A stretch of DNA of 64,000 nt from Oerskovia douganii (GTDB lineage Bacteria > Actinomycetota > Actinomycetes > Actinomycetales > Cellulomonadaceae): positions 125,618 through 189,617 of the forward strand of contig NZ_JACSPN010000001.1 of NCBI RefSeq assembly GCF_015142735.1. The letters are read 5' to 3'. The notes below the pieces were generated by a model. It saw only the letters and a program-made list of their open reading frames with translations. It had not been told where the DNA came from and did not search any database. Made by a program: the position numbers and the translations under genes. The number at the start of each line of letters is the position of its first letter. Position 1 is the first letter of the stretch. This document shows positions 4,951-19,198 of the stretch, in pieces.

Positions 4951-5066
4951 TGGGGGACTCCAGCCGGGCAGGGGGCGGTGGGATTCAGTCTGGTCCCGGC
5001 GGGCGGCGAGTGCCTGTCGGGGCATCGCGCGGGCGGGCCCTGGGTTCTGCTCAGCGATGAGCCGAC

Positions 5067-5081
5067 TGTGGTCTGACCACA
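5067..5081. promoter_or_regulatory. Operator 1 for the lactate regulator
   Basis: Fifteen-base perfect palindrome TGTGGTCTGACCACA lying between lutA and the divergent FadR-type regulator. The TGGTC-N-GACCA core fits operators of FadR/LldR-type GntR proteins. Its centre lies 48 bases from that of the second copy. Confidence 0.85.
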
Positions 5082-5114
5082 CGGTGTCCGAGCCACTGTA
5101 GACCATCGAGCGGC

Positions 5115-5129
5115 TGTGGTCGGACCACA
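5115..5129. promoter_or_regulatory. Operator 2 for the lactate regulator
   Basis: Second perfect palindrome TGTGGTCGGACCACA, identical to operator 1 except for the central base. The pair sits in the divergent promoter region and probably controls both lutABC and the regulator gene, by inference. Confidence 0.85.
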
Positions 5130-5207
5130 TGGCCACGGTGCGTCAGATCGGGGCGGCCTCGCGGTCGCACCCGTTCCGACCGGCCCGCCCGGCACTACGC
5201 TGACCCC

Positions 5208-5894
5208 GTGCGCACCCACGAGATCGTCCTCGCCCGGATCGAGGCGGACCTGACCGCCGGCCGCTGGGGCCTCGGCGAACGCCTCCCGGCCGAGCGCGCG
5301 CTCGCCGAGGAGCTCGGCGTCTCGCGCCCGTCGGTCCGTGAGGCGCTGCGGGTCCTGGAGGCCATGGGCATCGTCCGCACCGCGGTGGGTTCCGGGCCCG
5401 ACGCCGGCGCGACCGTGATCGACCGGCCCGCCGCAGGCCTGGGTGCGGCCGTGCGGCTGCACGTCGCGTCCGGGACGCTCGTGGTCGGCGACGTCGTCGA
5501 GACCCGGGTGCTGCTGGAGACCTGGGCGGTCGGACGGGCCGCCACGACCGCCGCCGGAGCCGGGCTCACGGAGGCCGTCGCGCTGCTCGACGCCATGGAG
5601 GACCCGGCGCTCGACGCGGCCGGGTTCCGTGAGCTCGACGCCGCGTTCCACGTCGAGCTCGTCCGGCTCGCGGGGAACACGCTGGTCGAGGCCGTCATGA
5701 CCGGGCTCCGCGGGGCGATCGAGTCCTACGTCGAGGCCGGGACGGACCGGCTCGAGGACTGGCCCCGTACCGCCGTGCGGCTGCGCGCCGAGCACCGGGC
5801 GATCCTCGACGCGGTCGCACGCGGCGACGGCCCGGGGGCCGAGGCGGCGGTGCGTGAGCACATCGAGGGCTTCTACCGGGAGGCGGGGCTGTGA
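5208..5894 (+). CDS. FadR-subfamily GntR regulator, probable lactate regulator
   Basis: A 228-residue regulator with an N-terminal winged helix (about residues 5-70, containing RLPAERALAEELGVSRPSVREALRVLEAMG) and a C-terminal FCD helical domain (about 90-220). FCD domains often bind a metal and a carboxylic acid ligand through His and Asp residues, seen here in FRELDAAFHVELV and the C-terminal HRAI and EHIEGF segments. The GTG start lies 6 bases after a TACGCT -10 box (5196-5201). Divergence from lutABC and two palindromes between them make it the likely lactate-responsive repressor. Its stop overlaps the next gene's start (GTGA). Confidence 0.87.
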   Translation: MRTHEIVLARIEADLTAGRWGLGERLPAERALAEELGVSRPSVREALRVLEAMGIVRTAVGSGPDAGATVIDRPAAGLGAAVRLHVASGTLVVGDVVETRVLLETWAVGRAATTAAGAGLTEAVALLDAMEDPALDAAGFRELDAAFHVELVRLAGNTLVEAVMTGLRGAIESYVEAGTDRLEDWPRTAVRLRAEHRAILDAVARGDGPGAEAAVREHIEGFYREAGL

Positions 5895-6835
5895 GCATCG
5901 ACCACCTGGACGTCCTCGCCGCGGCCCAGCGCATCGCGGGCCAGGTGCGCCCCGTCACGCTCGCGCCCCTGGACCCGGGGGCGCTGGGGGCGGCCACGGG
6001 GGTGTTCGCGCTCGAGCTCATGCAGCACACCGGCTCGTTCAAGGCGCGGGGGGCCCTCAACTTCGTCGGGGCGCACCTGGAGGCGGGCACGCTGCCCGAG
6101 TCCGGGGTCGTGATCGCGTCGGGCGGCAACGCGGGCATGGCGAACGCGTGGGCCGCGCGGGCGCACGGGGTCCGCGCGACCGTGTTCGTGCCCGTGACCG
6201 CCCCGGCGGTCAAGGTCGCTCGGCTGCGCACGCTGGGCGCAGAGGTCCACCAGGTCGGTGCCGAGTACGCCGAGGCGCTCGACGCCGCGCAGCGCTTCGC
6301 GTCCCGGACGGGGGCCCTGTCCTCGCACGCCTACGACGACCCGTTGATCGCGGCGGGGGCGGGCACGCTCCTGGAGGAGATCGTCGCGGCCCGCCCGGAC
6401 GTCGGCACGGTCGTGGTGGCGGTGGGCGGCGGCGGGCTGTTCAGCGGCGTGGCGGCAGCGGCGCGCCCGCGAGGGATCCGGGTCGTGGCGGTCGAGCCCG
6501 ACGGGGCGCAGGCGATGCACGCGGCGCTCGACGCGGGCCGTGTGGTCGACGTGCCCGTCGCGTCGGTCGCGGCCGACTCGCTCGGTGCGCGTCGGACGTC
6601 CGAGACGGCGCTGCGCCTCGCGCAGCACGCCGACGTGCGCTCGGTCCTGGTGACCGACGCCGCGATCGTGGCCGCGCGTCGGCACCTGTGGGACGAGCGG
6701 CGGCTCGCCGTCGAGCACGGGGCCGCCGCGGCGCTCGCGGCCCTCGAGTCGCGAGCCTACGTGCCGGAGCCCGGCGAGAAGATCGCGATCGTGCTGTGCG
6801 GGGCGAACACGGACCCGGCGGACCTCGCACGCTGA
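5891..6835 (+). CDS. PLP-dependent threonine/serine dehydratase
   Basis: A 314-residue fold-type II PLP enzyme expected to deaminate L-threonine or L-serine to a 2-oxo acid. The Schiff-base lysine is Lys51 in HTGSFKARGA, the substrate loop is SGGNAGMANA, and the phosphate-binding glycine loop is VGGGGLFSG. There is no C-terminal ACT regulatory domain, so it resembles the short catabolic class rather than biosynthetic IlvA. Its GTG start overlaps the stop of the lactate regulator. Co-regulation with lactate use would fit pyruvate production from serine, but which amino acid is used is not shown. Confidence 0.85.
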   Translation: MSIDHLDVLAAAQRIAGQVRPVTLAPLDPGALGAATGVFALELMQHTGSFKARGALNFVGAHLEAGTLPESGVVIASGGNAGMANAWAARAHGVRATVFVPVTAPAVKVARLRTLGAEVHQVGAEYAEALDAAQRFASRTGALSSHAYDDPLIAAGAGTLLEEIVAARPDVGTVVVAVGGGGLFSGVAAAARPRGIRVVAVEPDGAQAMHAALDAGRVVDVPVASVAADSLGARRTSETALRLAQHADVRSVLVTDAAIVAARRHLWDERRLAVEHGAAAALAALESRAYVPEPGEKIAIVLCGANTDPADLAR

Positions 6836-6842
6836 GCGGTCG

Positions 6843-6868
6843 TCGGGGCGGGCGGCCGCCCGCCCCGA
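6843..6868. terminator. Perfect GC palindrome between convergent genes
   Basis: A 26-base perfect palindrome built on TCGGGGCGGGC lies 7 bases after the dehydratase stop and about 75 bases from the stop of the convergent MFS gene. It can terminate transcription from either side. No T-tract follows, as is usual in this GC range. Confidence 0.6.
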
Positions 6869-6944
6869 GCGCTCGTGACAGCCCGGCGCCCGACGGCCCG
6901 GCACCCGACGGCGCAGCGCACCGACGAGGGTCGGCGCGGCGGGA

Positions 6945-8306
6945 TCAGGCTGCGCCGCCGGTGGCGGGGAGCGAGTCGTCGGCCCAGGTCTGCGGGGTGC
7001 CGATCCGCCACAGCGGTCGGACCGTCGCGATCGCGCCGACGGTCCCGGCGAGCAGCCCGGCGAGCACGACGAGCGCCGTGCCGATCCCGTAGCGCTCCAG
7101 CAGACCGGCCCCCACGAGCGGGATCAGCGGCCCCGCGACGAGTCCGGTCAGGCCCATGATCGACGCGAGGCGCCCCTGCATCTCGTGCGGGGTGATCGCT
7201 GCGGCGTAGCCGGCCAGGCCGGCGTTGACGGCGGGGACCAGGAGGACGGCGACGGGGAGCGTCGCGACGTAGACCGCGTAGGTCTGCGCGGTGGCCATGA
7301 CGACCGCGCCGACCGCGAGCAGGGTGAGGGCCGCGACCGTGAGGGCGCCCGCGCGGACGCGCGCCACGAGCTGTGGTGCGAGCACGGCGCCGACGAGGAC
7401 GCCTGCGCCGACGGAGAGGTCGACGACCCCGATGAGGACGGGGGCGACCCCGGTCCGGACGAGCTCGAGGTTGATCCCGACGAGGAGCCCCCCGAACGCG
7501 ATGTTGATGACGACGAAGAGTCCCAGGAGGGCCCGGAAGACGGGGACCGACCAGACGAAGCGCAGCCCTTGGCGCAGGGCCTCGACGGGGCGGGTCGCGC
7601 GCGCCGCGGCCGTGTCCCTGTTGAGAGGCTCGCGCACCGCCCAGGTGCAGACCGCGGTCGCCGCCGACCCGACCGCGGCCGCGGCGAGCGGGACGGCGTG
7701 CCCGATCGCGAAGAGCAGGCCGCCGACCGGCCCGGCGAGCAGGCTCGCGACGGCGTCGCGTCCCTGGGAGGCGGCGAGCGCGGTGGGGAGCTGCGGGGGC
7801 GGGACGACGGACCGGAAGGCCCCGCTCGTCGCGGGATCGACGAACGCCCCCACGACGGATGCGCCGAACAGCACGAGGGCGAGGTGCCAGGCGGTGAGGG
7901 ACCCGAGCGCGGCGGCGACGCCTGCCGTGACCCAGAGCGCTGCACCTACGGTGCTCGCCCCGACGACCAGGCGTCGACGGTCGACGCGGTCCGCGACGAC
8001 CCCGGCCGGGAGCGTCGTGAGCAGCGCGCCGACCTGGCCCACGGCCGCGACGAGACCGGCCTGGAGGACCGACCCGGTCAGCGAGTACGCCACGAGCGGG
8101 ACCGCGAAGAGGGCGAGGCCGGCGCCGAGCGACTCGGTCGTCAGCCCCGTCATGAGGAGCATGTAGGAGCGGTTGCGGAGCAGGCTCGGCACGGCCGGCA
8201 CGGCTGGCACGGCCGGCACGGCGGACGCCTGTGCCGCCCCGGGCGGCGCGGGCTCGTCGCCCGGAGCGTCGCGGGGCGGGGGTGGCGTGCTCTGGGCGGT
8301 CGACAT
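6945..8306 (-). CDS. MFS efflux transporter
   Basis: A 453-residue major facilitator with about twelve membrane segments, likely an exporter of a small molecule or drug. The N-terminal cytoplasmic tail (about 45 residues) is Pro/Ala-rich and contains a short AVP repeat. A typical MFS loop motif, GVVADRVDRRRLV, follows the second segment. The ATG at 8304-8306 is preferred; a longer reading runs through the operator. It is divergent from an ArsR regulator with a 20-base palindrome between them, so it is probably the repressed target. The substrate is not predictable. Confidence 0.82.
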   Translation of the reverse strand: MSTAQSTPPPPRDAPGDEPAPPGAAQASAVPAVPAVPAVPSLLRNRSYMLLMTGLTTESLGAGLALFAVPLVAYSLTGSVLQAGLVAAVGQVGALLTTLPAGVVADRVDRRRLVVGASTVGAALWVTAGVAAALGSLTAWHLALVLFGASVVGAFVDPATSGAFRSVVPPPQLPTALAASQGRDAVASLLAGPVGGLLFAIGHAVPLAAAAVGSAATAVCTWAVREPLNRDTAAARATRPVEALRQGLRFVWSVPVFRALLGLFVVINIAFGGLLVGINLELVRTGVAPVLIGVVDLSVGAGVLVGAVLAPQLVARVRAGALTVAALTLLAVGAVVMATAQTYAVYVATLPVAVLLVPAVNAGLAGYAAAITPHEMQGRLASIMGLTGLVAGPLIPLVGAGLLERYGIGTALVVLAGLLAGTVGAIATVRPLWRIGTPQTWADDSLPATGGAA

Positions 8307-8335
8307 GCGGCACACGCTAATCCCGCAACATCCAA

Positions 8336-8355
8336 TGCGCAATAGTCATTGCGCA
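8336..8355. promoter_or_regulatory. ArsR-type operator between MFS and regulator
   Basis: Perfect inverted repeat with arms TGCGCAAT and ATTGCGCA around AGTC. It lies 30 bases upstream of the MFS start and 41 bases upstream of the ArsR start, where it could repress both divergent promoters. Confidence 0.82.
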
Positions 8356-8396
8356 ATCTGTCGTGCGGATGAGCGTCGCGTTGCTAGCCTCGACCC

Positions 8397-8984
8397 ATGC
8401 TCGAGACCTTCCGTGTCCAGGACCCCGCGGCGCTCCGGGCCATCGCCCACCCGACGAGGCAGCGGATCCTCACCGAGCTCGCGGTCCTCGGGCACGCCCG
8501 TGCCGCGGACCTGGCACAGGTCATCGGCGAGCCCGCGAACTCCGTCAGCTTCCACCTGCGGGTCCTGGCCAGGGCCGGGATGATCGTCGAGGCGCCGGAG
8601 CAGGCGCGCGACCGGCGGGACCGGGTGTGGACCAACGTCGCCGAGAGCTACGTCGTCGACCCCGGGTCTCCCGAGGTCGTCCGCGAGGTGGTGCGCCCCG
8701 CGCTGAGGTGGGCCGAGCGGTTGTTCGCGGAGGCGAACAGCGCGGGGGCCCGGCACGAGGACCGGCTGTTCGCCATCAGCGCCCTCGTCCTGACGCCCCA
8801 GCAGGCCGCGGAGATGACCCAGGAGGTCACGGAGCTGCTCGAGCGCTGGGCGCACCGCGCGCTCACCGAGGCCCAGGACGACCCCGACCCCGCGCGGCGC
8901 GCGTACCAGGCCCTGACGGTGCTCGCGCCCCGCGCGGAGAAGCGCGATCCGGACGACGACCCGCCCGCCGTCGGGCAGGGCTAG
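8397..8984 (+). CDS. ArsR family helix-turn-helix regulator
   Basis: A 195-residue regulator. Residues about 8-85 form a winged helix of the HTH_20 type (AIAHPTRQRILTELAVLGHARAADLAQVI, then NSVSFHLRVLARAGMI). The C-terminal half is helical and lacks clustered cysteines, so metal sensing is unlikely and a small organic ligand is more plausible. The start follows a TAGCCT -10 box at 8385-8390 by 6 bases, making the message leaderless. It probably represses the divergent MFS gene. Confidence 0.85.
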   Translation: MLETFRVQDPAALRAIAHPTRQRILTELAVLGHARAADLAQVIGEPANSVSFHLRVLARAGMIVEAPEQARDRRDRVWTNVAESYVVDPGSPEVVREVVRPALRWAERLFAEANSAGARHEDRLFAISALVLTPQQAAEMTQEVTELLERWAHRALTEAQDDPDPARRAYQALTVLAPRAEKRDPDDDPPAVGQG

Positions 8985-9088
8985 CCTCCGCGCCGCGACG
9001 GCGGCGGGTCGCCCTGGTGTTGCGCCTCGGGGTGGCCCCTCCCACGCTGGAGGGACGTCGGTCGGCACACGCCAGGAGGAGACCAGCG

Positions 9089-10678
9089 ATGAGCGACACC
9101 GCGCAGTCCTCGACCCAGGGGGCCGACCAGCCCGAGCTGGTCCTCTCCCAGGGCACCGTCTACGTCATCTTCAGCGCGCTGCTGGCCGCGATGTTCCTGT
9201 CCGCGCTGGACCAGTCCGTCGTCGGCACGGCTCTGCCCACGATCGTGGGAGACCTCGGCGCGGCCCAGGACGAGGGCTGGATCATCACGGCCTACCTCCT
9301 CGCGATCGCGATCGTGATGCCGATCTACGGCAAGGTCGGCGACCTGCGCGGACGGCGCCTGCCGTTCCTCGTCGCGATCGCGATCTTCGTGGTCGGCTCG
9401 ACCGGCTCGGCCCTGTCGTCGTCGTTCGTCGAGCTCGTGGTGTGGCGCTCGGTCCAGGGCCTGGGGGCGGGCGGTCTGGTGATCCTGAGCCAGGCGATCA
9501 TCGCCGACATCGTCTCGGCACGGGACCGCGGCCGCTACATGGGGCCCATGGGGGCGGTGTTCGGCATCGCGACGGTCGCCGGGCCCCTGCTCGGCGGGTG
9601 GTTCACCGAGGGGCCCGGGTGGCGCTGGTGCTTCTGGCTCAACGTGCCGATCGGGTTGGCCGCGCTCGCGATCGCGTACTTCAAGCTCCGGCTCCCGTCG
9701 CGCACCCCGAGCACGCGGTTCGACGTCGGCGGCGCCGTCCTGATGGCCGTCACGACCGCGGGCATCGTGCTCCTCACGAGCTGGCGGACGATCTCGAGCG
9801 ACCGGACGTACGACTGGAGCAGCCCGGGCCTCCTCGGTCTGGTGGCCGTCACGGTGCTCGCGCTGGTCGCATTCCTCGTCGTCGAGACCCGGGTCGCCGA
9901 TCCCCTCATCCCGCTGCACCTGTTCAGGAGCCCCACGTTCTCGGTGTCGGTGTCGATCGCCCTGGTGCTGGGCATGACGATGTTCGCCGCGTTGTCGTTC
10001 CTGCCGACGTTCCTGCAGATGGCGCAGGGGTACAGCGCCACGGAGGCGGGGCTGCTGATGCTGCCCATGACGATCGGGCTCATGATCACGGCGATCGGCT
10101 CGGGCCTGCTGATCGCCCGCACGGGTCGGTACAAGATCTACCCGATCCTCGGGATGGGGATCGCGACGGTCGGGCTGGTCCTGCTGACGCAGCTCACGGC
10201 CGACATGTCCATGGTGACGTTCGGCGCCATGATCTTCGTGCTCGGGTTCGGCCTCGGGCTGGTCATGCAGACCATCGTGATCGCGGTCCAGAACTCGGTC
10301 GCCCCGGAGATGGTCGGTGTGGCGACCTCGACCAACAACTTCCTGCGGGAGATCGGTGCGGCGGTCGGCACCAGCCTGTTCTCGACCGTGTTCACCACGA
10401 ACCTCACGTCCAGGCTGTCCGAGGCGACCAAGGGGATCCCGCCGAGCGACGTCCCCGAGGGCTTCGGTGCGAACTCCCTCACGCCGGAAGCGGTCAAGGA
10501 CCTGCCCGCGCAGCTGCACGACCTCGTCGTCACGGCCTACACCGAGGCGCTCGCCCCCGCGTTCTGGTACCTGGTGCCGCTGGGCGTGCTGGGCTTCGTC
10601 ATCGCGTTCTTCATGAGGGAGGTCAAGCTCTCCGACCAGGCCGGCCTCGTCGCGCGGGGAGCCGCGGTCGCGAGGTGA
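9089..10678 (+). CDS. DHA2 (EmrB/QacA) family drug exporter
   Basis: A 529-residue proton-coupled exporter with about fourteen membrane segments. The family signature LDQSVVGTALPTIVGDLG is in segment 1, the MFS motif GKVGDLRGRRLPF follows segment 2, and the antiporter motif GPLLGGWFTEGPGWRWCFWLNVPIG is in segment 5, cited here in overlapping parts because of its length. A strong ribosome site (AGGAGGAG) precedes the ATG at 9089. It lies 104 bases after the ArsR gene on the same strand and could share its control, but a separate promoter is equally possible. A long hairpin follows at 10746-10798. Confidence 0.86.
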   Translation: MSDTAQSSTQGADQPELVLSQGTVYVIFSALLAAMFLSALDQSVVGTALPTIVGDLGAAQDEGWIITAYLLAIAIVMPIYGKVGDLRGRRLPFLVAIAIFVVGSTGSALSSSFVELVVWRSVQGLGAGGLVILSQAIIADIVSARDRGRYMGPMGAVFGIATVAGPLLGGWFTEGPGWRWCFWLNVPIGLAALAIAYFKLRLPSRTPSTRFDVGGAVLMAVTTAGIVLLTSWRTISSDRTYDWSSPGLLGLVAVTVLALVAFLVVETRVADPLIPLHLFRSPTFSVSVSIALVLGMTMFAALSFLPTFLQMAQGYSATEAGLLMLPMTIGLMITAIGSGLLIARTGRYKIYPILGMGIATVGLVLLTQLTADMSMVTFGAMIFVLGFGLGLVMQTIVIAVQNSVAPEMVGVATSTNNFLREIGAAVGTSLFSTVFTTNLTSRLSEATKGIPPSDVPEGFGANSLTPEAVKDLPAQLHDLVVTAYTEALAPAFWYLVPLGVLGFVIAFFMREVKLSDQAGLVARGAAVAR

Positions 10679-10745
10679 GCCCGGCCTCGTGACGGGCCTC
10701 GCCGGTCACCCGGAGGCCTGGCCGCCCGGTGTCCCGGACGCCCGA

Positions 10746-10798
10746 CGCCCGACGCCGGAGCGCACCTGGGAGGCCCGGGTGCGCTCCGGCGTCGGGCG
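10746..10798. terminator. Bidirectional hairpin terminator
   Basis: A 21-base-pair perfect stem (arms 10746-10766 and 10778-10798) around an 11-base loop lies between the exporter and the convergent unknown gene. The arm contains GCCCGACGCCGGAGCGCACC. Nearly the same stem recurs at 13622-13671. Confidence 0.8.
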
Positions 10799-10802
10799 CC
10801 TC

Positions 10803-11150
10803 TCAGTGGGGGTAGCGGTTCACCCCCGGGAAGGCCCCCGCGTTCGGGGGGAGGGCGGCGATCGCGGCCACCTGCGCCGCGGGGGTCTGCATGGCCCAGT
10901 TCGCCCACCCCGGGATGTACGAGTTGCCGGCCACGACGGCGCCGGCGGGGGTGAAGTGGATGTGGCCCACGACGCAGAGCGTCATGCCGCCGAACGGCAC
11001 GAACGTGTATGCGTAGCGGGTCACGCCCGCGGCCGCCGTGGTGACGTACACGGGGGCTGCGAAGTTCGCGGCGTGGACCAGGTTGGTCGCGTCGGCGTTC
11101 GTGAACGGGACGGGAAAGCCGTTGACGCACTTGATGGGATCCCAGGGCAT
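10803..11150 (-). CDS. Small protein of unknown function, second gene of an unknown pair
   Basis: A 115-residue protein I do not recognise. It has few charged residues, many Ala, Val, Tyr, Phe and Pro, and two Cys (positions 8 and 59). No signal peptide or membrane helix is evident. Phrases such as FVPFGGMTLCVVGHIHF and YIPGWANW suggest a compact beta-rich fold, by inference. A good ribosome site (GAAGGAGAG) precedes the ATG. It follows the 360-residue unknown gene on the same strand by 73 bases, so the two are probably one operon. A hairpin directly after the stop ends the unit. Confidence 0.75.
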   Translation of the reverse strand: MPWDPIKCVNGFPVPFTNADATNLVHAANFAAPVYVTTAAAGVTRYAYTFVPFGGMTLCVVGHIHFTPAGAVVAGNSYIPGWANWAMQTPAAQVAAIAALPPNAGAFPGVNRYPH

Positions 11151-11223
11151 GGTTCTCTCCTTCGGTCGGGTCGATCGGGTGGTCGGGACGGGGTGGTTCG
11201 TGCTGAGGTGCGGACGTGCGTGG

Positions 11224-12306
11224 TCAGCCGACCGCGCCGGTGCCGCGCTCGACCGCGCGCGTGGCGCCCGGCCACACCCCGTAGAGGTCGATGACGATCT
11301 GGCCGTTCGGGAACTGCCCCACGGGCGACGGCCAGTTGAACCGGTGCTTCTCGTCGTCGAACATCCCCTTGAAGGCCAGGTCGAGCTGGAGGCCCGTCGC
11401 GTTCACCGGGATGGGGTTCATCGCGGTCGCCCGCCCGCCGGAGACCGACGCGCTCGACGAGTGCTGGACGCCGTCGACCGTGTAGGTGGCCGTGGCGTCG
11501 ACGATGTACGTCCCGCTGTGCGAGTCGTCGAGCAGGATCGAGATCCCCGAGAGGTTGTTGACCCACCCCAGCACCGGGGTCTGCCCCACGAACGACGCGA
11601 ACTGGTACGCGACGGGCATCAGGGTGGTCGCGACGACGTTCGGGTCCGCCGGCCACAGGTGCTGCTCGAACGAGCTGCTGGACTTCGTCTGCGCGTAGGA
11701 GCCCTTCGCGTCGCCGCCCGCGTTGCCCGCCATGGCGTTGGTGGCGCCGACCGACCCCGTGATCGAGAACGACGAGTTCGAGGACTGGGCTCCCAGGTTG
11801 AGCCCGCTCACGGCCATGAGGGCCTGCGTGATGATGCCGAACCCCTGCGTGATCTGCCCGTTCTGGTACATCCCCGCGCTCTTGGCCTGCGCGACGAGCC
11901 AGTCGCGGTGCGAGTCGATCTGGCTCAGGGGCGACGCGAGGTAGGACTGGTTGGCGAGCAGGAACGTCGAGCTCAGCGAGCCCTCGTGCCCGAACTTCCA
12001 GGTCAGCTCGAGACCGGCGTCGACCTTGGTCCCGGTGTCGGGGTCGACGACCGAGCCGTTGAGGTTGACGGCCGCGGAGGACGTCGAGACGTCCGACGAC
12101 TGGACCTTCCACTCGTTGGACGGCGACGTCGTGGTCGCGACGTCCGCGTCCGGGAGCGTCGAGACGTACTGGAAGGCGCCGGTCGTCGGGGTGACGATGC
12201 CGACGGCCCCCGCCGCGACGTGCGCGTCCAGGCTCCAGTTGCCCCAGTAGGACGGTTGGGTGTTGCGCAGCATCTGGGTGAATCCCAGGTTCCAGTTGGT
12301 GCTCAT
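11224..12306 (-). CDS. Protein of unknown function, first gene of an unknown pair
   Basis: A 360-residue protein I cannot assign. It is rich in Ser, Thr, Asn, Gln, Gly and Ala with low charge, has no signal peptide or clear transmembrane helix, and looks mostly beta-structured. Recognisable stretches are PSYWGNWSLDAHV near the N terminus, a central helical part QGFGIITQALMAVSGLN, and KGMFDDEKHRFNWPSPVGQF near the C terminus. The ATG at 12304-12306 is preferred over an in-frame ATG 12 bases upstream because GGAGG lies correctly spaced before it. The gene faces a SARP-type regulator across about 460 bases. The low-charge, Ser/Thr-rich composition resembles self-assembling or membrane-inserting proteins, but this is only suggestive. 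Confidence 0.75.
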   Translation of the reverse strand: MSTNWNLGFTQMLRNTQPSYWGNWSLDAHVAAGAVGIVTPTTGAFQYVSTLPDADVATTTSPSNEWKVQSSDVSTSSAAVNLNGSVVDPDTGTKVDAGLELTWKFGHEGSLSSTFLLANQSYLASPLSQIDSHRDWLVAQAKSAGMYQNGQITQGFGIITQALMAVSGLNLGAQSSNSSFSITGSVGATNAMAGNAGGDAKGSYAQTKSSSSFEQHLWPADPNVVATTLMPVAYQFASFVGQTPVLGWVNNLSGISILLDDSHSGTYIVDATATYTVDGVQHSSSASVSGGRATAMNPIPVNATGLQLDLAFKGMFDDEKHRFNWPSPVGQFPNGQIVIDLYGVWPGATRAVERGTGAVG

Positions 12307-12760
12307 CAGGTCCTCCATCGCATCGCAGGACGGCGCCGGGCGGCGCCGAGAACCTCCTCATCGGAGCAGGGCCGGCGCACCGGGCGGCACGGTCCGGCGT
12401 CGCCCGCACGCCGCGTGCGGCAGGCGTCGCCGCACGCTCGAGGGGCTGCGACGACGGGGCGCGTCGCCGCACCGCACGGCGGTGTCCCGGGCGCGCACGG
12501 GTGCTCGCCGCGGGCCGCGTCGCCATCCGTCGCGCCGCCGCGGGGACCCGTGCGGACGTGCCGGCCCGCCGCGTCGGACCGGCCGGCGCCCCCGTCCGTG
12601 CGTCGTCCTGGCGCACCGCGGCGGACGGGCCGGTGGGTCGGTCGAGCGGCCGGCGAGGCCCCGCACCGACGGCCGTGCGGGGCGCGGCGGGCGCGGGAGC
12701 CCTCGGGCCGTGACACACCCGCACGGCCGGATTCAGAGAGAATGTCCCTCGTGCGCGCCC
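12307..12760. other. Long divergent intergenic region without a gene
   Basis: About 450 very GC-rich bases separate the unknown operon from the SARP regulator. Open frames here encode only Arg/Ala/Pro-rich nonsense. It must hold the promoter of the unknown operon and probably SARP binding sites. I found no clear heptamer direct repeats by eye. Confidence 0.6.
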
Positions 12761-12766
12761 TACCAT
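12761..12766 (+). promoter_or_regulatory. -10 box of the SARP leader transcript
   Basis: TACCAT lies 6 bases before the ATG of an 18-codon leader reading frame, the same spacing seen at other leaderless genes in this window. Confidence 0.55.
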
Positions 12767-12772
12767 GCGTCT

Positions 12773-12829
12773 ATGAGTCCTGAGCCCGCTCGCGACCATG
12801 CTGTCCCCCCGAAGATCGGGGCCGAGTGA
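12773..12829 (+). CDS. Candidate 18-residue leader peptide coupled to the SARP gene
   Basis: This short frame starts with ATG 6 bases after a TACCAT box and encodes MSPEPARDHAVPPKIGAE. Its stop overlaps the SARP start codon as GTGA. A small hairpin (arms CCCCGA and TCGGGG) lies just before the SARP start. The arrangement suggests that SARP translation depends on ribosomes leaving the leader. It is not rich in one amino acid, so a classical attenuation peptide is unlikely. It may simply be the way a leaderless message supplies ribosomes to an internal start. Confidence 0.45.
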   Translation: MSPEPARDHAVPPKIGAE

Positions 12830-13596
12830 GTCCGGCGGACTCCCAGCGCGTGCGGCGCGAGCTGCGGGTGATCGGACCGTTCCAGGTGCGCGTGGACGGG
12901 CAGGTGCGCCCCATGCCGCACAGCGCGGAGCGGGTGCTCGCCGTCGTGGCGCTCGTGGGTCCGCTCGCCCGGTCGCGGGCCGCCGCCCTGCTGTGGCCCG
13001 ACGCGAACCCGTCGCGCGCCGGTGCCAACCTCCGCGCTGCGCTGTCCCGCCTGGGCGACGTCGCCGAGGGGTTCGTCCACGTGTCCGGCGAGGTGCTCGC
13101 GCTCGCGGAGGAGGCGTCGCTCGACCTCGAGGCCGCGTTCGCGTGGATCAACGCGACCATCTACGACGACGTCCTGCCGGTGGCGGGCGCACCGCCCGCG
13201 TGGATCGGCCGGACCCTGCTCCCCGGGTGGGAGGACGGGTGGCTCACGGGCCCCAACGAGCGGTTGCAGATGCTCGAGGCACAGGCGCTCGAGAGCGCCG
13301 CGGAGCGGCTCCTCGCCGCGGGGCACCCGGACGGGGCGCTGCCCTACGCCCTGTCCGCGGTCGAGGTGCAGCCGTGGTCGGAGAGCGCCAACCGGCTCAC
13401 GATCGAGATCCACGCCCGCAGGGGCGACCCGAGCAACGCCCTGCGGCACTACCGCCGCTTCCGCCACGCGCTCGGGCAGGAGCTCGGCGTCGAGCCCGGC
13501 CCCGACATCCGGGCGGCGATCCGGCAGCTCTACCCGTTCGGCAACCCGCTGGTCGACCCGGTCGACCCCGCCGACCCGCAGGCGGCGCGCAGCTGA
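12826..13596 (+). CDS. SARP-type regulator with a BTAD domain
   Basis: A 256-residue transcriptional activator-like protein. Residues about 10-90 resemble an OmpR-type winged helix (LRVIGPFQVRVDGQ, then SRAAALLWPDANPSRAGANLRAALSRL). Residues about 110-250 match the bacterial transcriptional activator domain, with ERLLAAGHPDGALPYALSAV and HYRRFRHALGQELGVEPGPDI. It lacks the ATPase and repeat domains of large SARPs. In Streptomyces such small SARPs switch on adjacent gene clusters. Here the only plausible neighbour target is the divergent unknown operon at 10803-12306. The GTG start overlaps a leader peptide. Confidence 0.82.
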   Translation: MSPADSQRVRRELRVIGPFQVRVDGQVRPMPHSAERVLAVVALVGPLARSRAAALLWPDANPSRAGANLRAALSRLGDVAEGFVHVSGEVLALAEEASLDLEAAFAWINATIYDDVLPVAGAPPAWIGRTLLPGWEDGWLTGPNERLQMLEAQALESAAERLLAAGHPDGALPYALSAVEVQPWSESANRLTIEIHARRGDPSNALRHYRRFRHALGQELGVEPGPDIRAAIRQLYPFGNPLVDPVDPADPQAARS

Positions 13597-13621
13597 CCCG
13601 CCTGCCCCGGGGCGCCCGGAC

Positions 13622-13671
13622 GCCCGACGGCGGAGCACACCCGGGGACGCGGGTGCGCTCCGCCGTCGGGC
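13622..13671. terminator. Bidirectional hairpin terminator
   Basis: A 21-base stem with one A-C mismatch (arms 13622-13642 and 13651-13671, loop 8 bases) lies between the convergent SARP gene and prfC. The arm is nearly identical to that of the hairpin at 10746-10798. Confidence 0.75.
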
Positions 13672-13686
13672 AGGGGGAGCGGGCGG

Positions 13687-15357
13687 CTACTGGCCGAAGA
13701 TCTCGTCCTCGAGCAGGACCACGCCCTCGAGACGGTTGCGCACCGACGTGACGCGCCAACGGTCCGGGAAGAGGGCCAGGTACTCGCCGTCCTCGCGCTG
13801 CAGGACCTCGACACCGGGCTGCTCGTTGAGCTTCGCGACCCAGTCCTTCGTGGTGCGCAGCGCCATGGAGTAGCCCAGGCGGTCGAGCGTCACGGGGGCG
13901 TTGAACTCGGTCGCCATGCGGTGCTCGGCGACCTCGAACTGCATGGGGCCCACGACGGCCAGGACCGGCGCCTGGTCGCCACGCAGGTCCGAGCGCAGGA
14001 CCTGGACGACACCCTCCGCGCCGAGCTGCATGACGCCGCGCTGGAACTGCTTGTAGCGCGAGACGTCCTTGGCGCGCATGACCGCGAAGTGCTCGGGCGC
14101 GAACGTCGGCAGCGGCGGGAACTCGACCTTCTTGTCCAGGTAGAGCGTGTCGCCCACGCGCAGGCCCGCAGCGTTGACGAGGCCCACGACGTCGCCCGGG
14201 TACGCGGTGTCGACGATCGTGCGCTCGCGGCCGAACACCTGCTGCGCGTACTTCGTCGCGAACGGCTTGCCCGTGCGTGCCGAGCTCACGACCATGCCGC
14301 GCTCGAACACGCCCGAGCAGATGCGCGCGAACGCGAGCCGGTCGCGGTGCGCGGTGTCCATCCCGGCCTGCATCTTGAACACGAACGCGCTGAAGGGCGC
14401 CTCGACGGGGCGCGTGTCGCCCGTGACGGTCTCGCGCGGCGACGGGGAAGGGGCGATGTCCACCAGGACGTCGAGCAGCGCGTGGACGCCGAAGTTCTGC
14501 ACGGCGGACCCGAACAGCACGGGCGTCGTCTGCCCGGCCAGGAACGACTCCTGGTCGTGGTCGCCGTTGGTGTCGGCGAGCAGCTCGGCCTCCTCGGTCG
14601 CGGTCGTCCACGCGTCCCCCTCGCGTGCCAGGGCCGCGTCGGGGTCCATGACCTCCTCGGGGGCGATCGTGGTGCCGCCCGCCGTGCGCGTGTAGTGCAC
14701 GTACTGCCCCGTGCGGCGGTCCAGGACGCCCCGGAAGTCGCCGCCGACGCCCACGGGCCACGTGAGCGGGGTGGGGACCAGGCCCGTGCGCTCCTGGATC
14801 TCGTCCATGAGCTCGAGCGCGTCCTTGCCCGGGCGGTCCCACTTGTTGATGACCGTGATGAGGGGGATGCCGCGGTGCTTGCAGACCGCGAAGAGCTTCA
14901 TGGTCTGGACCTCGAGGCCCTTGGCCGCGTCGACCAGCATCACGGCGGCGTCGACCGCGGACAGCACGCGGTACGTGTCCTCGGAGAAGTCGGCGTGCCC
15001 CGGGGTGTCGACCAGGTTGATCATGGCGTCGCGGTAGGTGAACTGCAGGGCGGCGGACGTGATCGAGATCCCGCGGTCCTGCTCCATGTCCATCCAGTCG
15101 GACACCGTGCGCTTGCCCGCCTTGCCGTCGGCGCGGCCCGCCTCGCGGATCGCGTTCGCGTGCAGGGCGAGCGCCTCGGTGAGCGTCGACTTCCCGGCGT
15201 CCGGGTGGCTGATGACGGCGAACGAGCGGCGGCGCGACGCCTCCGCGAGGACGGTCGCCTGCTCCTTCGCCGCGCTGCCCGGCGAGCCGGACGCGCCCGC
15301 CGGCGAGGCGGGGGCGGTGGTGCTGGAGGTCGTGGTGGGCTGGTCCGCTGAGGGCAC
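13687..15357 (-). CDS. prfC: Peptide chain release factor 3
   Basis: A 556-residue translational GTPase that recycles release factors 1 and 2 after termination. The G domain shows the P-loop HPDAGKST (residues 51-58), DTPGHADF and NKWDRPG, and the C-terminal RF3 domain contains QFQRGVMQLGAEGVVQVL and VVGPMQFEVAEHR. The GTG at 15355-15357 is chosen because it leaves a short Ser/Thr/Pro-rich tail before the conserved core, and AGGA lies upstream. A GTG much further upstream is open but adds residues unlike the family. RF3 is not universal, and its presence here is unremarkable. Confidence 0.92.
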   Translation of the reverse strand: MPSADQPTTTSSTTAPASPAGASGSPGSAAKEQATVLAEASRRRSFAVISHPDAGKSTLTEALALHANAIREAGRADGKAGKRTVSDWMDMEQDRGISITSAALQFTYRDAMINLVDTPGHADFSEDTYRVLSAVDAAVMLVDAAKGLEVQTMKLFAVCKHRGIPLITVINKWDRPGKDALELMDEIQERTGLVPTPLTWPVGVGGDFRGVLDRRTGQYVHYTRTAGGTTIAPEEVMDPDAALAREGDAWTTATEEAELLADTNGDHDQESFLAGQTTPVLFGSAVQNFGVHALLDVLVDIAPSPSPRETVTGDTRPVEAPFSAFVFKMQAGMDTAHRDRLAFARICSGVFERGMVVSSARTGKPFATKYAQQVFGRERTIVDTAYPGDVVGLVNAAGLRVGDTLYLDKKVEFPPLPTFAPEHFAVMRAKDVSRYKQFQRGVMQLGAEGVVQVLRSDLRGDQAPVLAVVGPMQFEVAEHRMATEFNAPVTLDRLGYSMALRTTKDWVAKLNEQPGVEVLQREDGEYLALFPDRWRVTSVRNRLEGVVLLEDEIFGQ

Positions 15358-15480
15358 TGGAACGTCCTGTGGCTTCCTGCAGTTTCCTGCACGATCGAGG
15401 TCAAGGGGGCGGGGCGCATCCGCGCGGGACGCAGCACCCAGCTCTCCATTCTCCCGCGAGATCGAGGCGACGATGACCAC

Positions 15481-17079
15481 TCACCCGGGTGCCGGGTCTC
15501 CCCGGCTCAGCCGGATCTCCTCGAGGTCGAGCCGCGCCTGCACCTGCCGCAGGACCGTGTCGTCGATCGCGCGCTGGTCGCGCAGGCGCACGACCGTCTC
15601 GCGCTTGCGGGCCAGGAGCGCGAGGCGCAGCTCGGTGTACTCGTCGTCGAGACGCAGCACCGCGGGGTCGTCGCCCTCTGCGCCCTCGGTGCTCCGGGCC
15701 CGCAGCAGCGTGAGGTGCTCCTCGTACTCCCCGCGCAACCGGTCGACCACGGACGGGTCGGTCCCGAGCGTCGCGGCCACGTCGGGGAGCGCGTCGAGCG
15801 CCTCCTGGGCGGCCGTCTCGTCGGCGAGGCGACGCTCGGAGGCGAGGCCGTCGTCGTCGGGCAGGCGCGCCCACCGGATGGTGGGGGCCAGCAGCAGGCC
15901 CTGGACCACGAGCGTCGTCGCGACCACGCCGCTCGTGATGAACACGATGAGGTCGCGGTCGGGGAAGGGTGCGCCCGAGCTCAGCGTGGTGGGCACGGCG
16001 AGCGCAGCGGCCAGCGACACCGCGCCCCGGAAGCCCGCGACCGTGCTCACCGCGCGGGCCCGGTTCGTGACGCGCCGCGCACGCTGGGAGGGACGGCGGT
16101 CCACCAGGCGGATCGTGTACGCCGAGACCACGAGGAACACGAACCGCACCGCGAGGATGACCCCGCACACGACCACGACCCCCACGACCGCCGTCACCAG
16201 GTCCTCGGAGACCAGGTTGCGGACCGCGGACTGCGCCTCGAGGCCCACGAGCACGAACAGCGACGCGTTGATGAGGTACGTCGAGACGGACCAGAACGCG
16301 ACGGTCTGCTGCCGCGTGGCCGCGCGCCCGATGCGCGGCCCGACCTGGCTCATGACGAGCCCGCACACGACCACGGCGAGCACCCCGGACGCCTCGATCA
16401 GCTCGGCGAGCAGGTACGCCGTGAACGGGATGAGCAGGACGACGACGTTGCCCAGCAGCGGGTCGTCGATGCGGCGCCTGGCCTGGACGGCGAGCCACGC
16501 GACGAGCAGACCCACCACGATCCCGCCGCCGTACGCGAGCACGAACAGCCATGTCACGTGTCCCGCGCCGAGGGTCTCCTCGCCCACGGTCACGCCCACC
16601 GCGACGCCGTAGAGCACGAGCGCGGTGCCGTCGTTGACGAGGCTCTCGGCCCGCAGGACCGTGACCGTGCGCCGGGGCAGGGCGCGCGCGAGGACCCCGA
16701 CGGCGGTCGCGTCCGTCGGCGCCACCGCCGCGCCCAGGACCCACGCGGGCCCCCACGGCAGGCCCAGGGCGTGGGCGGCGGTCGCGACGGCCGCCGCGGT
16801 CACGACGACGAGGAGGGTGCTCGTCAGGACGATCCCGCGCAGCGCCGCGCGGATCTCCCGCAGCGAGATGGTGATGGCCTCCCAGTAGAGGAGCACCGGG
16901 AGGAACACGAGCAGCATGAGCTCGGGCGGCAGGTGCACCTGACGCAGCGCGGGCACGAACCCGAGCACGATCCCCGCGACGAGCAGCAGGATCGGGGGCG
17001 CGACGCGGGCGCGGCGCGCGAGGACCCCGCACACGACGACGACCGTTCCGAGGACCACGACGAGCTCGAGACCGATCAC
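15481..17079 (-). CDS. CPA1 family Na+/H+ antiporter
   Basis: A 532-residue antiporter with about twelve membrane helices followed by a hydrophilic C-terminal tail of some 110 residues with coiled-coil character (EEHLTLLRARS, LRLALLARKRETVVRLRDQ). Ion-binding motifs of CPA1 are clear: AVAPTDATAVGVLARAL and ESLVNDGTALVLY, with FRGAVSLAAALAVP in a later helix. It would exchange Na+ or K+ for protons at the plasma membrane. The GTG start at 17077-17079 has a consensus AGGAGG site. An upstream in-frame start would add a charged, unrelated stretch. Confidence 0.9.
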   Translation of the reverse strand: MIGLELVVVLGTVVVVCGVLARRARVAPPILLLVAGIVLGFVPALRQVHLPPELMLLVFLPVLLYWEAITISLREIRAALRGIVLTSTLLVVVTAAAVATAAHALGLPWGPAWVLGAAVAPTDATAVGVLARALPRRTVTVLRAESLVNDGTALVLYGVAVGVTVGEETLGAGHVTWLFVLAYGGGIVVGLLVAWLAVQARRRIDDPLLGNVVVLLIPFTAYLLAELIEASGVLAVVVCGLVMSQVGPRIGRAATRQQTVAFWSVSTYLINASLFVLVGLEAQSAVRNLVSEDLVTAVVGVVVVCGVILAVRFVFLVVSAYTIRLVDRRPSQRARRVTNRARAVSTVAGFRGAVSLAAALAVPTTLSSGAPFPDRDLIVFITSGVVATTLVVQGLLLAPTIRWARLPDDDGLASERRLADETAAQEALDALPDVAATLGTDPSVVDRLRGEYEEHLTLLRARSTEGAEGDDPAVLRLDDEYTELRLALLARKRETVVRLRDQRAIDDTVLRQVQARLDLEEIRLSRGDPAPG

Positions 17080-17158
17080 GGCTTCCTCCTCGCGGTCACC
17101 GCCCGCCGCAGGAGCGCATGGCACCGATCATCCGGCACCGTGCGGGTCCGCGCACGCG

Positions 17159-17755
17159 TCAGCGCTCGACGATGGTCGTCACGACGTCCGTCACGGTCGG
17201 CCGTCGCGGCACCGAGCCGAACCCGAACCGGACGGGCGGGTCGACGTCGCGCAGGTCTCCCAGCGGGTCGCCCGCCCACGAGGCCCGTGCGGCCGTGATC
17301 CGGTGCACGTCCGTCGCGCCGTAGTGCTCGACGCGTCCCGGCCCCGCGCTCCCGCGCGTCCGGACCCCGCGGAGCAGGACCCTGGCGACGGGGTCCGTGA
17401 GGACGGTGGCGTGCCGGGAGGTGGCGACCGGCCGGGGCAGTCCGCGCAGCAGGCGGCCGAGCGCCGTACGGCGCCCCACGTCGACCCACGCCTCGAGCGG
17501 CCCGGCGACCACGTGCCACCCGTCGGACACGGCGACCGGGCACACCTCGACCCGGTCGAACCGGTAGGTCGCCGCGACGAGGTCCGCGACGTGGTGCGAC
17601 GGGGCGAGGAGGACGCGCTCGCCGTCGGGCCGCTCGACCATGACGTCGGCGAACGACCCGAACGGGGACACGTCCCACCTGCCGACGACCACACGCGTCC
17701 CGGACGCGGTGCCCCACCCGGCGATGCGACCGTGGAACCGCAGGACGCTCGACAC
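17159..17755 (-). CDS. Conserved actinobacterial hypothetical protein
   Basis: A 198-residue soluble protein I cannot assign. It starts with MSSVLRFHGRIAGWGTASG and appears to be a beta-rich protein with no membrane helix. The GTG start lies 6 bases after TAGGCT (17767 down to 17762), which itself overlaps the stop codon of the neighbouring membrane gene, so transcription of this gene begins inside that gene's end. The two may still be partly co-expressed. Confidence 0.7.
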   Translation of the reverse strand: MSSVLRFHGRIAGWGTASGTRVVVGRWDVSPFGSFADVMVERPDGERVLLAPSHHVADLVAATYRFDRVEVCPVAVSDGWHVVAGPLEAWVDVGRRTALGRLLRGLPRPVATSRHATVLTDPVARVLLRGVRTRGSAGPGRVEHYGATDVHRITAARASWAGDPLGDLRDVDPPVRFGFGSVPRRPTVTDVVTTIVER

Positions 17756-17764
17756 CCGGGCAGC

Positions 17765-18157
17765 CTAGATCGTCGGGGAGAACCCGGTCGAGAAGAACGC
17801 CGCGACGACCGCCGCGCAGGTCACGACCGCGTACGTCGCGAACAGCAGGCGCTCGGCCCCGGGCCGGCTCGCCCATGCCTGGCGTCGCGCGACGAGCAGC
17901 AGGGCCAGCCCCAGCGCGACCACACCCGCCGACGCCAGCGCCGCGCCCACCCGGACGCCCTGCGCCGGGCAGGGAGGAGTCGCGACGACGGAGCCGCCCG
18001 CCCCACCCCCTGCCGCTGCGCACACGACCTCGAGCGTCGCGCTCCAGGCCAGCGCCACGCACGCCGCGGCGGCCAGCAGCACCGCACGCCGGACCGGGTG
18101 GACCGAGGCAGGGGCGCGTCGTGCCTCGGGGGCCGTGGAGCTCTCGTCGTCGAGCAT
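17765..18157 (-). CDS. Small hypothetical membrane protein
   Basis: A 130-residue protein with a charged N-terminal tail and three predicted membrane helices at about residues 24-46, 68-90 and 104-124. The loop between the first two carries a Cys pair (VVCAAAG and TPPCPAQG). I do not recognise the family. It precedes the 198-residue hypothetical on the same strand with a 9-base gap. Confidence 0.7.
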   Translation of the reverse strand: MLDDESSTAPEARRAPASVHPVRRAVLLAAAACVALAWSATLEVVCAAAGGGAGGSVVATPPCPAQGVRVGAALASAGVVALGLALLLVARRQAWASRPGAERLLFATYAVVTCAAVVAAFFSTGFSPTI

Positions 18158-18241
18158 CGCAGCAGTCTGCCAAGCCCCGCCGGATCCCGCCAGACCCGCA
18201 CCGGTTTCTCCCAGGCCCTGGTCCGGGGCGAAGATCTACCC

Positions 18242-19126
18242 GTGCACCGCAGCCACCCCGACACCGACGTCCCCGCCCCCGCCGACCCCGGCGCGACCCC
18301 GACCACGGGCCGCACGGGCCACAACGCCTGGAGGCTGTACAGGACGGCGACCCCGTCCCCCGCCCACGACGCCCCGCAGCCCCCGCCCGTCCTGCTCCTG
18401 CACGGCGTGACCGACTCGGGGGAGTGCTGGCCCGGCACGGTCCGCCACCTCGTGCGCTCGCGCGACGTCCTCGCGCTCGACGCCCGGGGTCACGGCGGCT
18501 CCGACGTGCCCGACGAGCCGTTCACGCTCGCGGCGCTCGCGGACGACGCGGCCCGCACGGTGCGGGAGGTCCTCGGGCGCCCGGTGGTCGTCGTCGGGCA
18601 CTCGATGGGCGGCCTCACCGCGCAGGAGCTCGCGCTGCGGCACCCGGACCTGGTCCTGGGCCTGGTCCTCGAGGACCCGGCGTGGGGCGTCCTCGACGCC
18701 GAGCACGACGAGGGCGGGCGCCCCGTGTTCCTCGCGCCGGGCATCGACGCGGCCCGCGGGCGCCCGACGGCGGAGCTCGCCGCCGAGTTCCGCGCCCGCT
18801 ACCCGCAGTGGTCGCCCGAGGAGTCGGAGCCGTGGGCGCGCGCGCAACAGGCGGTCTCGCCCCGGCTCCTGGAGGTCCCGCACGAGTGGACCGCACGGGA
18901 CTGGCCGGTCGCGTTCGACGGGGCGGCGCCCGTCGTGGTCGTCGCGGGCGAGGAGGCGCACGGCTCCCTGGTCTCCGACGACGGTGCACGCCGCGCGGCC
19001 GACGTCCTGGCGGGCGCGGTCTGGGTCGTGCGGGTCGCGGGAGCCGGGCACAACGTGCGCCGCGACGACCCCGTGACGTTCCTCGGGCTGGTCGACGGGC
19101 TGCTCGCCGAGGTCGAGGCGCGCTGA
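18242..19126 (+). CDS. Alpha/beta hydrolase
   Basis: A 294-residue serine hydrolase of the alpha/beta fold. The oxyanion region is LLLHGVTDSGECW, the nucleophile elbow is GHSMGG, and the catalytic His is in VAGAGHNVRRDDP. The acid residue is probably in the segment before VVVAGEEAHGS. The N-terminal 35 residues are Pro/Thr-rich. The GTG at 18242 is the start that keeps this tail short; no strong ribosome site is seen. The substrate is unknown. Confidence 0.82.
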   Translation: MHRSHPDTDVPAPADPGATPTTGRTGHNAWRLYRTATPSPAHDAPQPPPVLLLHGVTDSGECWPGTVRHLVRSRDVLALDARGHGGSDVPDEPFTLAALADDAARTVREVLGRPVVVVGHSMGGLTAQELALRHPDLVLGLVLEDPAWGVLDAEHDEGGRPVFLAPGIDAARGRPTAELAAEFRARYPQWSPEESEPWARAQQAVSPRLLEVPHEWTARDWPVAFDGAAPVVVVAGEEAHGSLVSDDGARRAADVLAGAVWVVRVAGAGHNVRRDDPVTFLGLVDGLLAEVEAR

Positions 19127-19159
19127 CCGGCCGGCGGTCGGCGGGCGACCGGAGGGCGA

Positions 19160-19179
19160 GCGCCGTGATCGCACGGCGC
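19160..19179. terminator. Hairpin terminator between convergent genes
   Basis: Stem GCGCCGT with ACGGCGC around a 6-base loop, extendable by an outer GGGC/CCC pairing, lies between the hydrolase and the convergent amidase gene. Confidence 0.55.
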
Positions 19180-19198
19180 CCGTTCTCCGACCCCTCGC

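What the first reader, a model, noticed from the sequence alone, without database searches (positions are those of the whole stretch)
10803..12306. Two-gene operon of unrecognised proteins under a divergent SARP regulator
A 360-residue and a 115-residue protein, both low in charge and rich in small polar or hydrophobic residues, form one operon ending in a strong terminator. I recognise neither fold. SARP-type regulators normally activate an adjacent cluster, so a compact regulator-plus-two-gene unit for a dedicated product or structure is plausible. Composition suggests an assembling, surface or membrane-acting protein pair.
Basis: partly seen in the sequence, partly recalled or inferred. Interest (0 to 1): 0.62.

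Follow-up and report, generated by a model that had tools for sequence, protein, structure and literature searches.

The report
SARP-controlled mobile two-gene protein cassette
Three neighbouring genes in a soil actinobacterium, an activator of the antibiotic-regulator type and two proteins of no known family, behave as one portable unit that moved between distant bacteria, and relatives of the activator stand beside an unrelated protein in the same layout, which hints at a plug-in system for making accessory effector proteins.

Summary
ORF1 (360 aa) and ORF2 (115 aa) lie in line on the minus strand, divergent to a 256-aa SARP (BTAD) gene. Neither has a credible match in Pfam, NCBIfam or the PDB. 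ORF1 is rare: 2 of 7 genomes of the genus, 1 of 396 sampled from the phylum. In all three actinobacterial genomes where it was found, SARP, ORF1 and ORF2 stand in the same order. In Nocardioides speluncae the flanks differ and ORF1 is 82% identical, against 69% for elongation factor G, so the trio moved as a block. In Oerskovia it sits between two copies of a palindromic repeat; 4 of 5 module-free relatives keep one copy there.

New context: five further SARP relatives read (51-64% identical) each stand divergent to an unrelated ~258-aa family. That family and ORF1 both recur on proteobacterial (mega)plasmids, with LuxR-type regulators upstream in the three loci read from Burkholderiaceae and Sinorhizobium. 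The SARP looks like a dedicated switch for exchangeable effector proteins.

What ORF1/ORF2 do is inferred, not shown; both AlphaFold models failed (pLDDT 38 and 40). Gasdermin and RNase T1 leads were tested and not supported.

The parts
11224..12306 (-). ORF1, 360-aa protein of unknown family, pI 4.8, 37.6 kDa, 31.7% S+T+N+Q
10803..11150 (-). ORF2, 115-aa protein of unknown family, 4.3% charged residues, same strand 73 bp downstream of ORF1
12826..13596 (+). SARP-type (BTAD) regulator, 256 aa, divergent to ORF1
12307..12825 (.). 519-bp divergent intergenic region expected to carry both promoters; no operator identified
10746..10798 (.).
13622..13671 (.). Palindromic repeat copy 2 (prfC side), -52 kcal/mol; with copy 1 it brackets the three genes
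9089..10678 (+). Flanking MFS transporter gene (name recalled from its sequence; one search was given it in the wrong frame), left border; not part of the unit
13687..15480 (-). Flanking prfC (release factor 3) gene (name recalled from its sequence), right border; not part of the unit

Best explanation
A mobile, dedicated-regulator effector cassette. Step 1 (inferred from the SARP family): under a growth-phase or stress cue the SARP activates the divergent ORF1-ORF2 operon. Step 2 (inferred from codon use and low synonymous divergence, mixed evidence): ORF1 is made in large amounts. Step 3 (inferred): ORF1, a soluble Ser/Thr/Asn-rich protein, is the main effector, and ORF2 is its lineage-specific partner (cargo, second component or specificity factor). 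Step 4 (inferred, weakest): the pair leaves the producer by lysis or non-classical export and acts on other cells, most likely at their membranes, giving an occasional advantage that explains the patchy, horizontally spread distribution. Shown: the three-gene unit, its transfer, its presence/absence at a site marked by palindromic repeats, the reuse of the same SARP type beside an unrelated protein family, and regulators in front of ORF1 homologues in two Burkholderiaceae. Not shown: any activity.
For: Same divergent order SARP<>ORF1-ORF2 in the window genome, Oerskovia enterophila (L004) and Nocardioides speluncae (L003): 3 of 3. DNA similarity between window 5001-20000 and L003 is confined to the three genes, but for one 68-bp stretch inside transporter genes. 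ORF1 82% vs EF-G 69% identity between the two genera. ORF1 in 2 of 200 family genomes, 1 of 396 of the phylum, 1 of 198 of the N. speluncae family, each count including the query's own or centre genome. Presence/absence site: prfC next to MFS (2) or to the HTH gene (3) in 5 of 5 genus genomes without the module; one palindrome there in 4 of 5, two around the module in both carriers; 72-bp flanking repeat at 96% in L004. dN/dS between congeners 0.11 (ORF1) and 0.43 (ORF2). The four closest SARPs of the family sample outside the carriers (51-55%) and a 64% SARP on a Curtobacterium plasmid stand divergent to an unrelated ~258-aa family, 5 of 5. ORF1 homologues at about 40% on Paraburkholderia and Cupriavidus megaplasmids follow a tandem-GerE regulator in 2 of 2 loci read and are followed by small ORFs without homology to ORF2 or to each other. 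The 27% Vibrio homologue carries a signal-peptide-like start (judged by eye).
Against: No activity, secretion signal or fold is shown for the actinobacterial proteins. AlphaFold failed for both (pLDDT 38.3 and 40.1). No profile match to any toxin, pore-former or defence family. High expression is doubtful: ORF1 of O. enterophila and N. speluncae have third positions of 96.4 and 96.1% G+C, at the window median of 96.1%. The small downstream ORFs in Burkholderiaceae could be unrelated neighbours, and their charge differs (5.8 and 19%). The Vibrio homologue has no partner and no recognisable adjacent regulator in the stretch read. SARP relatives at 34-42% (4 loci) do not show the divergent large-protein layout. 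No SARP operator was found in front of ORF1.
Confidence: 0.42

Rival explanations
1. Intracellular conflict (anti-phage or programmed-death) effector: the SARP cassette makes a protein pair that kills or arrests the producer itself upon infection, without export.
For: Patchy mobile distribution; no signal peptide by eye in the actinobacterial and Burkholderiaceae proteins; the 258-aa family that shares the SARP type lies near a Trypsin_2 protein (E 2.5e-6) on a Sinorhizobium plasmid, and trypsin-like peptidases occur in described bacterial conflict systems (PMC7159879, passages found).
Against: No PADLOC match for 5 of 5 ORF1 family members; no phage or viral-contig homologue was found; the Vibrio homologue looks exported.
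Confidence: 0.2
2. Structural or assembling protein made during development (surface layer, inclusion or aggregate) under SARP control; ORF2 is a minor subunit.
For: Ser/Thr/Asn/Gln-rich composition (31.7%), low charge of ORF2 (4.3%), strong conservation of ORF1, strong codon bias in the window copy.
Against: Absent from 5 of 7 genomes of the genus and from nearly all sampled relatives; found in Gram-negative bacteria, so not tied to one envelope type; charge is not low in the proteobacterial homologues (15-23%).
Confidence: 0.17
3. Gasdermin-like pore-former: the order of predicted strands and the helix in residues 95-240 resembles the gasdermin N-domain (noticed by eye).
For: Resemblance by eye only; the failed model still gives strand-helix-strand at 94-167.
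Against: Profile comparison with gasdermins A3 and D gives probability 0.06% (both alignments shallow); Pfam Gasdermin matches none of 5 family members; the profile found no gasdermin among PDB chains at E 10, although they are there. The genome search with Pfam Gasdermin (0 of 7) says nothing, as its 14 control genomes did not ring either.
Confidence: 0.06
4. ORF2 is a ribonuclease of the T1 type carried or delivered by ORF1.
For: RNase F1 is the only PDB hit of the ORF2 profile, E 0.066 over 94 residues; its 16.8 bits exceed every one of 1985 reported F1 shuffles (best 11.6) and 199 column-shuffled profiles (best 5.2).
Against: RNase T1 scores only 3.0 bits; profile comparison with F1+T1 gives 0.9%; the catalytic His40/Glu58/Arg77/His92 of T1 (recalled) are not aligned to like residues; a single-sequence search with the L003 protein found nothing.
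Confidence: 0.05
5. Ordinary rare orphan genes beside a SARP, without a shared function; the order was kept by a single recent transfer.
For: Only three actinobacterial instances are known, and the two Oerskovia ones are at one site; transfer of a 2.9-kb block would keep neighbours together anyway.
Against: The SARP type also stands divergent to another family in 5 of 5 loci read, and ORF1 has adjacent regulators of another class in 2 of 2 Burkholderiaceae loci read.
Confidence: 0.1

Closest known systems
SARP (Streptomyces antibiotic regulatory protein) pathway-specific activators
   Same: BTAD domain at 2.4e-17 and an N-terminal region that aligns across the subfamily; stands next to and divergent from the genes it probably controls
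   Different: The neighbours are not biosynthetic enzymes but one or two orphan proteins; the same SARP type is found with unrelated partners
The ~258-aa family beside related SARPs (L051-L054, Curtobacterium L059) and on Sinorhizobium and Vibrio plasmids (L060, L066); unnamed
   Same: Divergent to the same SARP type, 26-31% S+T+N+Q, third positions 97-98% G+C, spread to plasmids of other phyla; a small second ORF about 0.6 kb downstream in L062 and L063
   Different: No detectable homology to ORF1 (profile probability 0.09%); charge 10-19%
Bacterial binary protein toxins of a ~40-kDa plus ~13-kDa component (recalled, for example the Gpp34/Tpp35 pair)
   Same: Size pairing and two-gene order only (recalled)
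Bacterial gasdermins (cell-suicide pore formers)
   Same: Strand-helix-strand order by eye
   Different: Profile comparison with mammalian gasdermins negative; ORF1 has no Cys, while bacterial gasdermins are acylated on one (recalled); no recognised protease gene beside it

Membership tests
SARP regulator | BTAD domain | tested here: met
   PF03704 2.4e-17, 64.1 bits over cut-off 22.1
SARP regulator | N-terminal winged-helix DNA-binding domain | tested here: inconclusive
   No Trans_reg_C match; a region of the right place and length aligns across 8 relatives
SARP regulator | Heptamer direct repeats with 11-bp phasing in the target promoter | tested here: inconclusive
   No exact heptamer repeat at 11 or 22 bp in the window, L004 or L003 intergenic regions, but only exact repeats were sought; repeated GTCACG seen only beside the 258-aa family
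SARP regulator | Activates the adjacent genes | not testable with these tools
   needs transcription data
Gasdermin (ORF1) | Profile similarity to the gasdermin N-domain | tested here: not met
   (one search is uninformative, its controls were silent)
Gasdermin (ORF1) | Fold | tested here: inconclusive
   model pLDDT 38.3; Foldseek best E 0.31, meaningless
RNase T1 family (ORF2) | Profile similarity to family members | tested here: not met
   F1 16.8 bits but T1 3.0 bits; hhalign 0.9%
Known anti-phage defence protein | Match to a PADLOC model | tested here: not met
   0 families for 5 of 5 ORF1 members; ORF2 not scanned

The most novel reading that the evidence does not exclude
A described regulator type (SARP) has been recruited as the fixed 'socket' of a plug-in system: non-homologous effector proteins are swapped behind the same divergent promoter, and the same effectors are plugged behind LuxR-type regulators when they cross into Proteobacteria. 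ORF1 and the 258-aa protein would be founding members of two new effector families that act on other organisms. (Raised from 0.30 after one search showed a SARP 64% identical to the window's beside the other family.)
Probability: 0.33. Interest if true: 0.74.

Novelty: new variant of a known kind. Interest (0 to 1): 0.5.

Why it matters
SARPs are searched for as markers of antibiotic gene clusters. If a branch of them drives small protein-only cassettes, genome miners who look only for biosynthetic enzymes miss a whole class of products. The SARP subfamily is also a handle for finding further orphan effector families, since whatever stands divergent to it is a candidate.

Tried and rejected
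Rejected or failed: gasdermin relationship; RNase T1 relationship of ORF2; homology of ORF1 to the 258-aa family or to ORF2 (2%); homology of ORF2 to the small ORFs downstream of the Burkholderiaceae homologues; phage or viral origin; structure prediction of both proteins and Foldseek on the failed ORF1 model; SARP heptamer repeats in front of ORF1; a housekeeping yardstick with prfC, of which N. speluncae showed only distant GTPase relatives (29% at best), replaced by EF-G (a first EF-G comparison read the wrong frame and is not used); a known structure or family for the 258-aa protein. In one search the MFS gene was given in the wrong frame, so its lack of matches means nothing. Weak PDB hits of ORF1 to BclA (E 0.1) were not followed. 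(Pfam Gasdermin in 7 genomes) is uninformative because its controls were silent. Literature: searches; I saw the listings with the starts of abstracts, and passages of PMC7159879; no listed paper describes this cassette, in a library without most subscription journals.

What limits the result: proteobacterial chromosomes were scanned only for close relatives of ORF1 (short peptide patterns); distant relatives could be sought only on plasmids, so the true spread of ORF1 there is unknown. Of 9 SARP relatives outside the module carriers at E <= 1e-30 (11 of 200 genomes), I read the neighbours of 8: the 4 closest have the 258-aa family, the fifth (42%) has three small ORFs upstream on the same strand, the next three (34-38%) show no such partner within 1.5 kb; the ninth gave no locus. 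SARPs outside that family were not searched; the Curtobacterium one came in through the 258-aa family, so it is a biased sample of that pairing.

Full report
The observation. The two ORFs are where the finding puts them: ORF1 at 11224-12306 and ORF2 at 10803-11150, both on the minus strand, and a SARP-type gene at 12826-13596 on the plus strand. Both are real genes: frames are kept in two other species, third positions are 98.6 and 95.7% G+C, and dN/dS is 0.11 for ORF1 and 0.43 for ORF2 between two Oerskovia species. The synonymous divergence of ORF1 from the congener (dS 0.11) is lower than that of prfC (0.18), SARP (0.27), ORF2 (0.25) and MFS (0.36), and its third positions are at the top of the window ORFs compared. 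I read this as codon selection, hence possibly high expression; but the ORF1 copies of O. enterophila and N. speluncae have 96.4 and 96.1%, the window median, so the point is weak. The 'strong terminator' is a hairpin of -61 kcal/mol without a T-run.

No known family. ORF1 and ORF2 have no Pfam match at E 1 (0 of 5 ORF1 family members at E 5), no NCBIfam match of weight. ORF1 has none in PADLOC and only weak ones in PHROGs (best 0.07). No PDB chain is credible.

Who has it. The genome is close to Oerskovia: Oerskovia enterophila DSM 43852 carries ORF1 at 98% (by its coordinates the same place as G043). ORF1 was found in 2 of 200 genomes of the family, 2 of 7 of the genus (overlapping), 1 of 396 of the phylum (the window genome itself) and 1 of 198 of the family of Nocardioides speluncae (that genome itself). 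ORF2 was found in 1 of 396 of the phylum (own genome), in N. speluncae (1 of 4 records asked) and in O. enterophila, and in no plasmid. On plasmids ORF1 homologues occur in 5 of 72,556 records: three Paraburkholderia, one Cupriavidus (about 40%) and one Vibrio tasmaniensis (27%). No phage or viral contig was found to have one.

The three genes move together. In N. speluncae, of another order (recalled), SARP, ORF1 and ORF2 stand in the same divergent order, at 66-70%, 82% and 66-69% identity. DNA similarity covers only the three genes, but for 68 bp inside transporter genes. ORF1 at 82% exceeds elongation factor G (named from its sequence) at 69% between the same two genomes, which vertical descent of a rare gene does not explain. 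In the genus, all five genomes without the module have prfC directly beside the MFS gene (2) or the HTH gene (3), with no trace of SARP, ORF1 or ORF2 in the loci read. Both carriers have a palindromic repeat on each side of the module; 4 of the 5 others have a single copy at that place and one (G085) has none. In O. enterophila the flanking repeats are 72 bp at 96%, in the window 66 bp at 85%. The two single-copy sites compared (L018, L020) match the left flank of one repeat and the right flank of the other, as recombination between two copies, or the state before insertion, would give. On the prfC tree the carrier G043 pairs with the empty G023 (support 0.99), with the carrier G000 next: one loss or two gains; a single gene cannot decide.

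The SARP has other partners. At E <= 1e-30, 11 of 200 family genomes have a SARP relative, two being the module carriers. The four closest others (51-55%) each stand divergent to a ~258-aa protein, 65-68% identical to the L053 one, with third positions of 97-98% G+C and unrelated to ORF1 by profile (0.09%). In two of the three such loci extended, homologous small ORFs of 92-96 aa lie about 0.6 kb downstream on the same strand (35 of 91 residues identical). A Curtobacterium plasmid has a BTAD gene divergent to a 43% homologue with two further orphan ORFs; this SARP is 64% identical to the window's (154 of 240), closer than those of the family sample, though it sits beside the other effector. 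The 258-aa family lies on 47 plasmid records: 44 Sinorhizobium, 2 Vibrio, 1 Curtobacterium. In the one Sinorhizobium locus read, a GerE regulator lies 1.2 kb upstream, and a paralogue (hhalign 96%) and a Trypsin_2 protein (2.5e-6) downstream. More distant SARP relatives do not fit: at 42% three small ORFs lie upstream on the same strand, and at 34-38% three loci show no such partner.

Burkholderiaceae. In both loci read (Paraburkholderia L007, Cupriavidus L006) the ORF1 homologue follows a tandem-GerE regulator (not annotated in the L007 record), 68 of 141 residues identical between the two, and precedes a small ORF that is homologous neither to ORF2 nor to the other. The Vibrio homologue shows neither, but begins with a signal-peptide-like stretch (judged by eye). 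Low charge is not a trait of the family: 15-16% in Burkholderiaceae and 23% in Vibrio, against 10.8% in the window. Sources include a bug's midgut and, by the abstract of PMC5026438 seen, millipede faeces; that is too little for an ecological claim.

Interpretation. The unit is a mobile accessory cassette with its own switch. That the products act on other organisms, probably at membranes, is my best inference from the patchy transfer, the changing small partner and the exported-looking Vibrio form; no activity is shown. Two more specific ideas failed their tests: gasdermin (0.06%) and RNase T1 (0.9%). Intracellular defence and a structural role remain open.

Novelty. None of my literature searches listed a description of this cassette; the library lacks most subscription journals. 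I call it a new variant of a known kind: a SARP-linked locus whose products are one or two exchangeable orphan proteins instead of a biosynthetic pathway.

Noticed in passing
window 10746-10798 and 13622-13671; L018, L020, L016, L019: A ~50-bp palindrome (GACGNCGGAGCGCACC core) occurs 3-12 times per genome of the genus by a strict pattern; in the window the only two copies with both arms bracket the module.
   Followed up: partly
L051-L054, L059, L060, L066: An undescribed ~258-aa family beside SARPs in Cellulomonadaceae and on 47 plasmid records (44 Sinorhizobium), with a paralogue and a trypsin-like peptidase next to it in the Sinorhizobium locus read.
   Followed up: partly
Intergenic regions of L051, L052, L053, L054, L059: GTCAC(G) occurs 3-4 times per region in the effector direction against 0.2-0.4 expected; spacing 11 and 22 bp in L059, 21, 32-33, 53-54 and others elsewhere. 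A candidate SARP operator for that branch. In front of ORF1 it occurs once per region.
   Followed up: partly
L055 2497-3604: A 42% SARP relative has three small ORFs upstream on the same strand; one of 106 aa has homologues on Nitrosomonas, Paracoccus and Streptomyces plasmids.
   Followed up: partly
L006 9101-9529: The 142-aa ORF after the Cupriavidus homologue has SGTHG and AYCCSAG stretches that recall a cysteine hydrolase by eye; no Pfam or NCBIfam match.
   Followed up: partly
L005 and L007 6510-6944: PLSDB labels a 435-bp gene near the Paraburkholderia homologue as VIM-73 beta-lactamase at 100% identity, while the record calls the same gene a VOC family protein; it looks like a false resistance call.
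   Followed up: no
window 12730-12744 and L003 intergenic region: A 15-bp block (CATTCTCTCTGAATC in Oerskovia, CATTTCGCCATAATC in Nocardioides, read towards ORF1) near the SARP start is partly kept; it may be a promoter or operator element.
   Followed up: no
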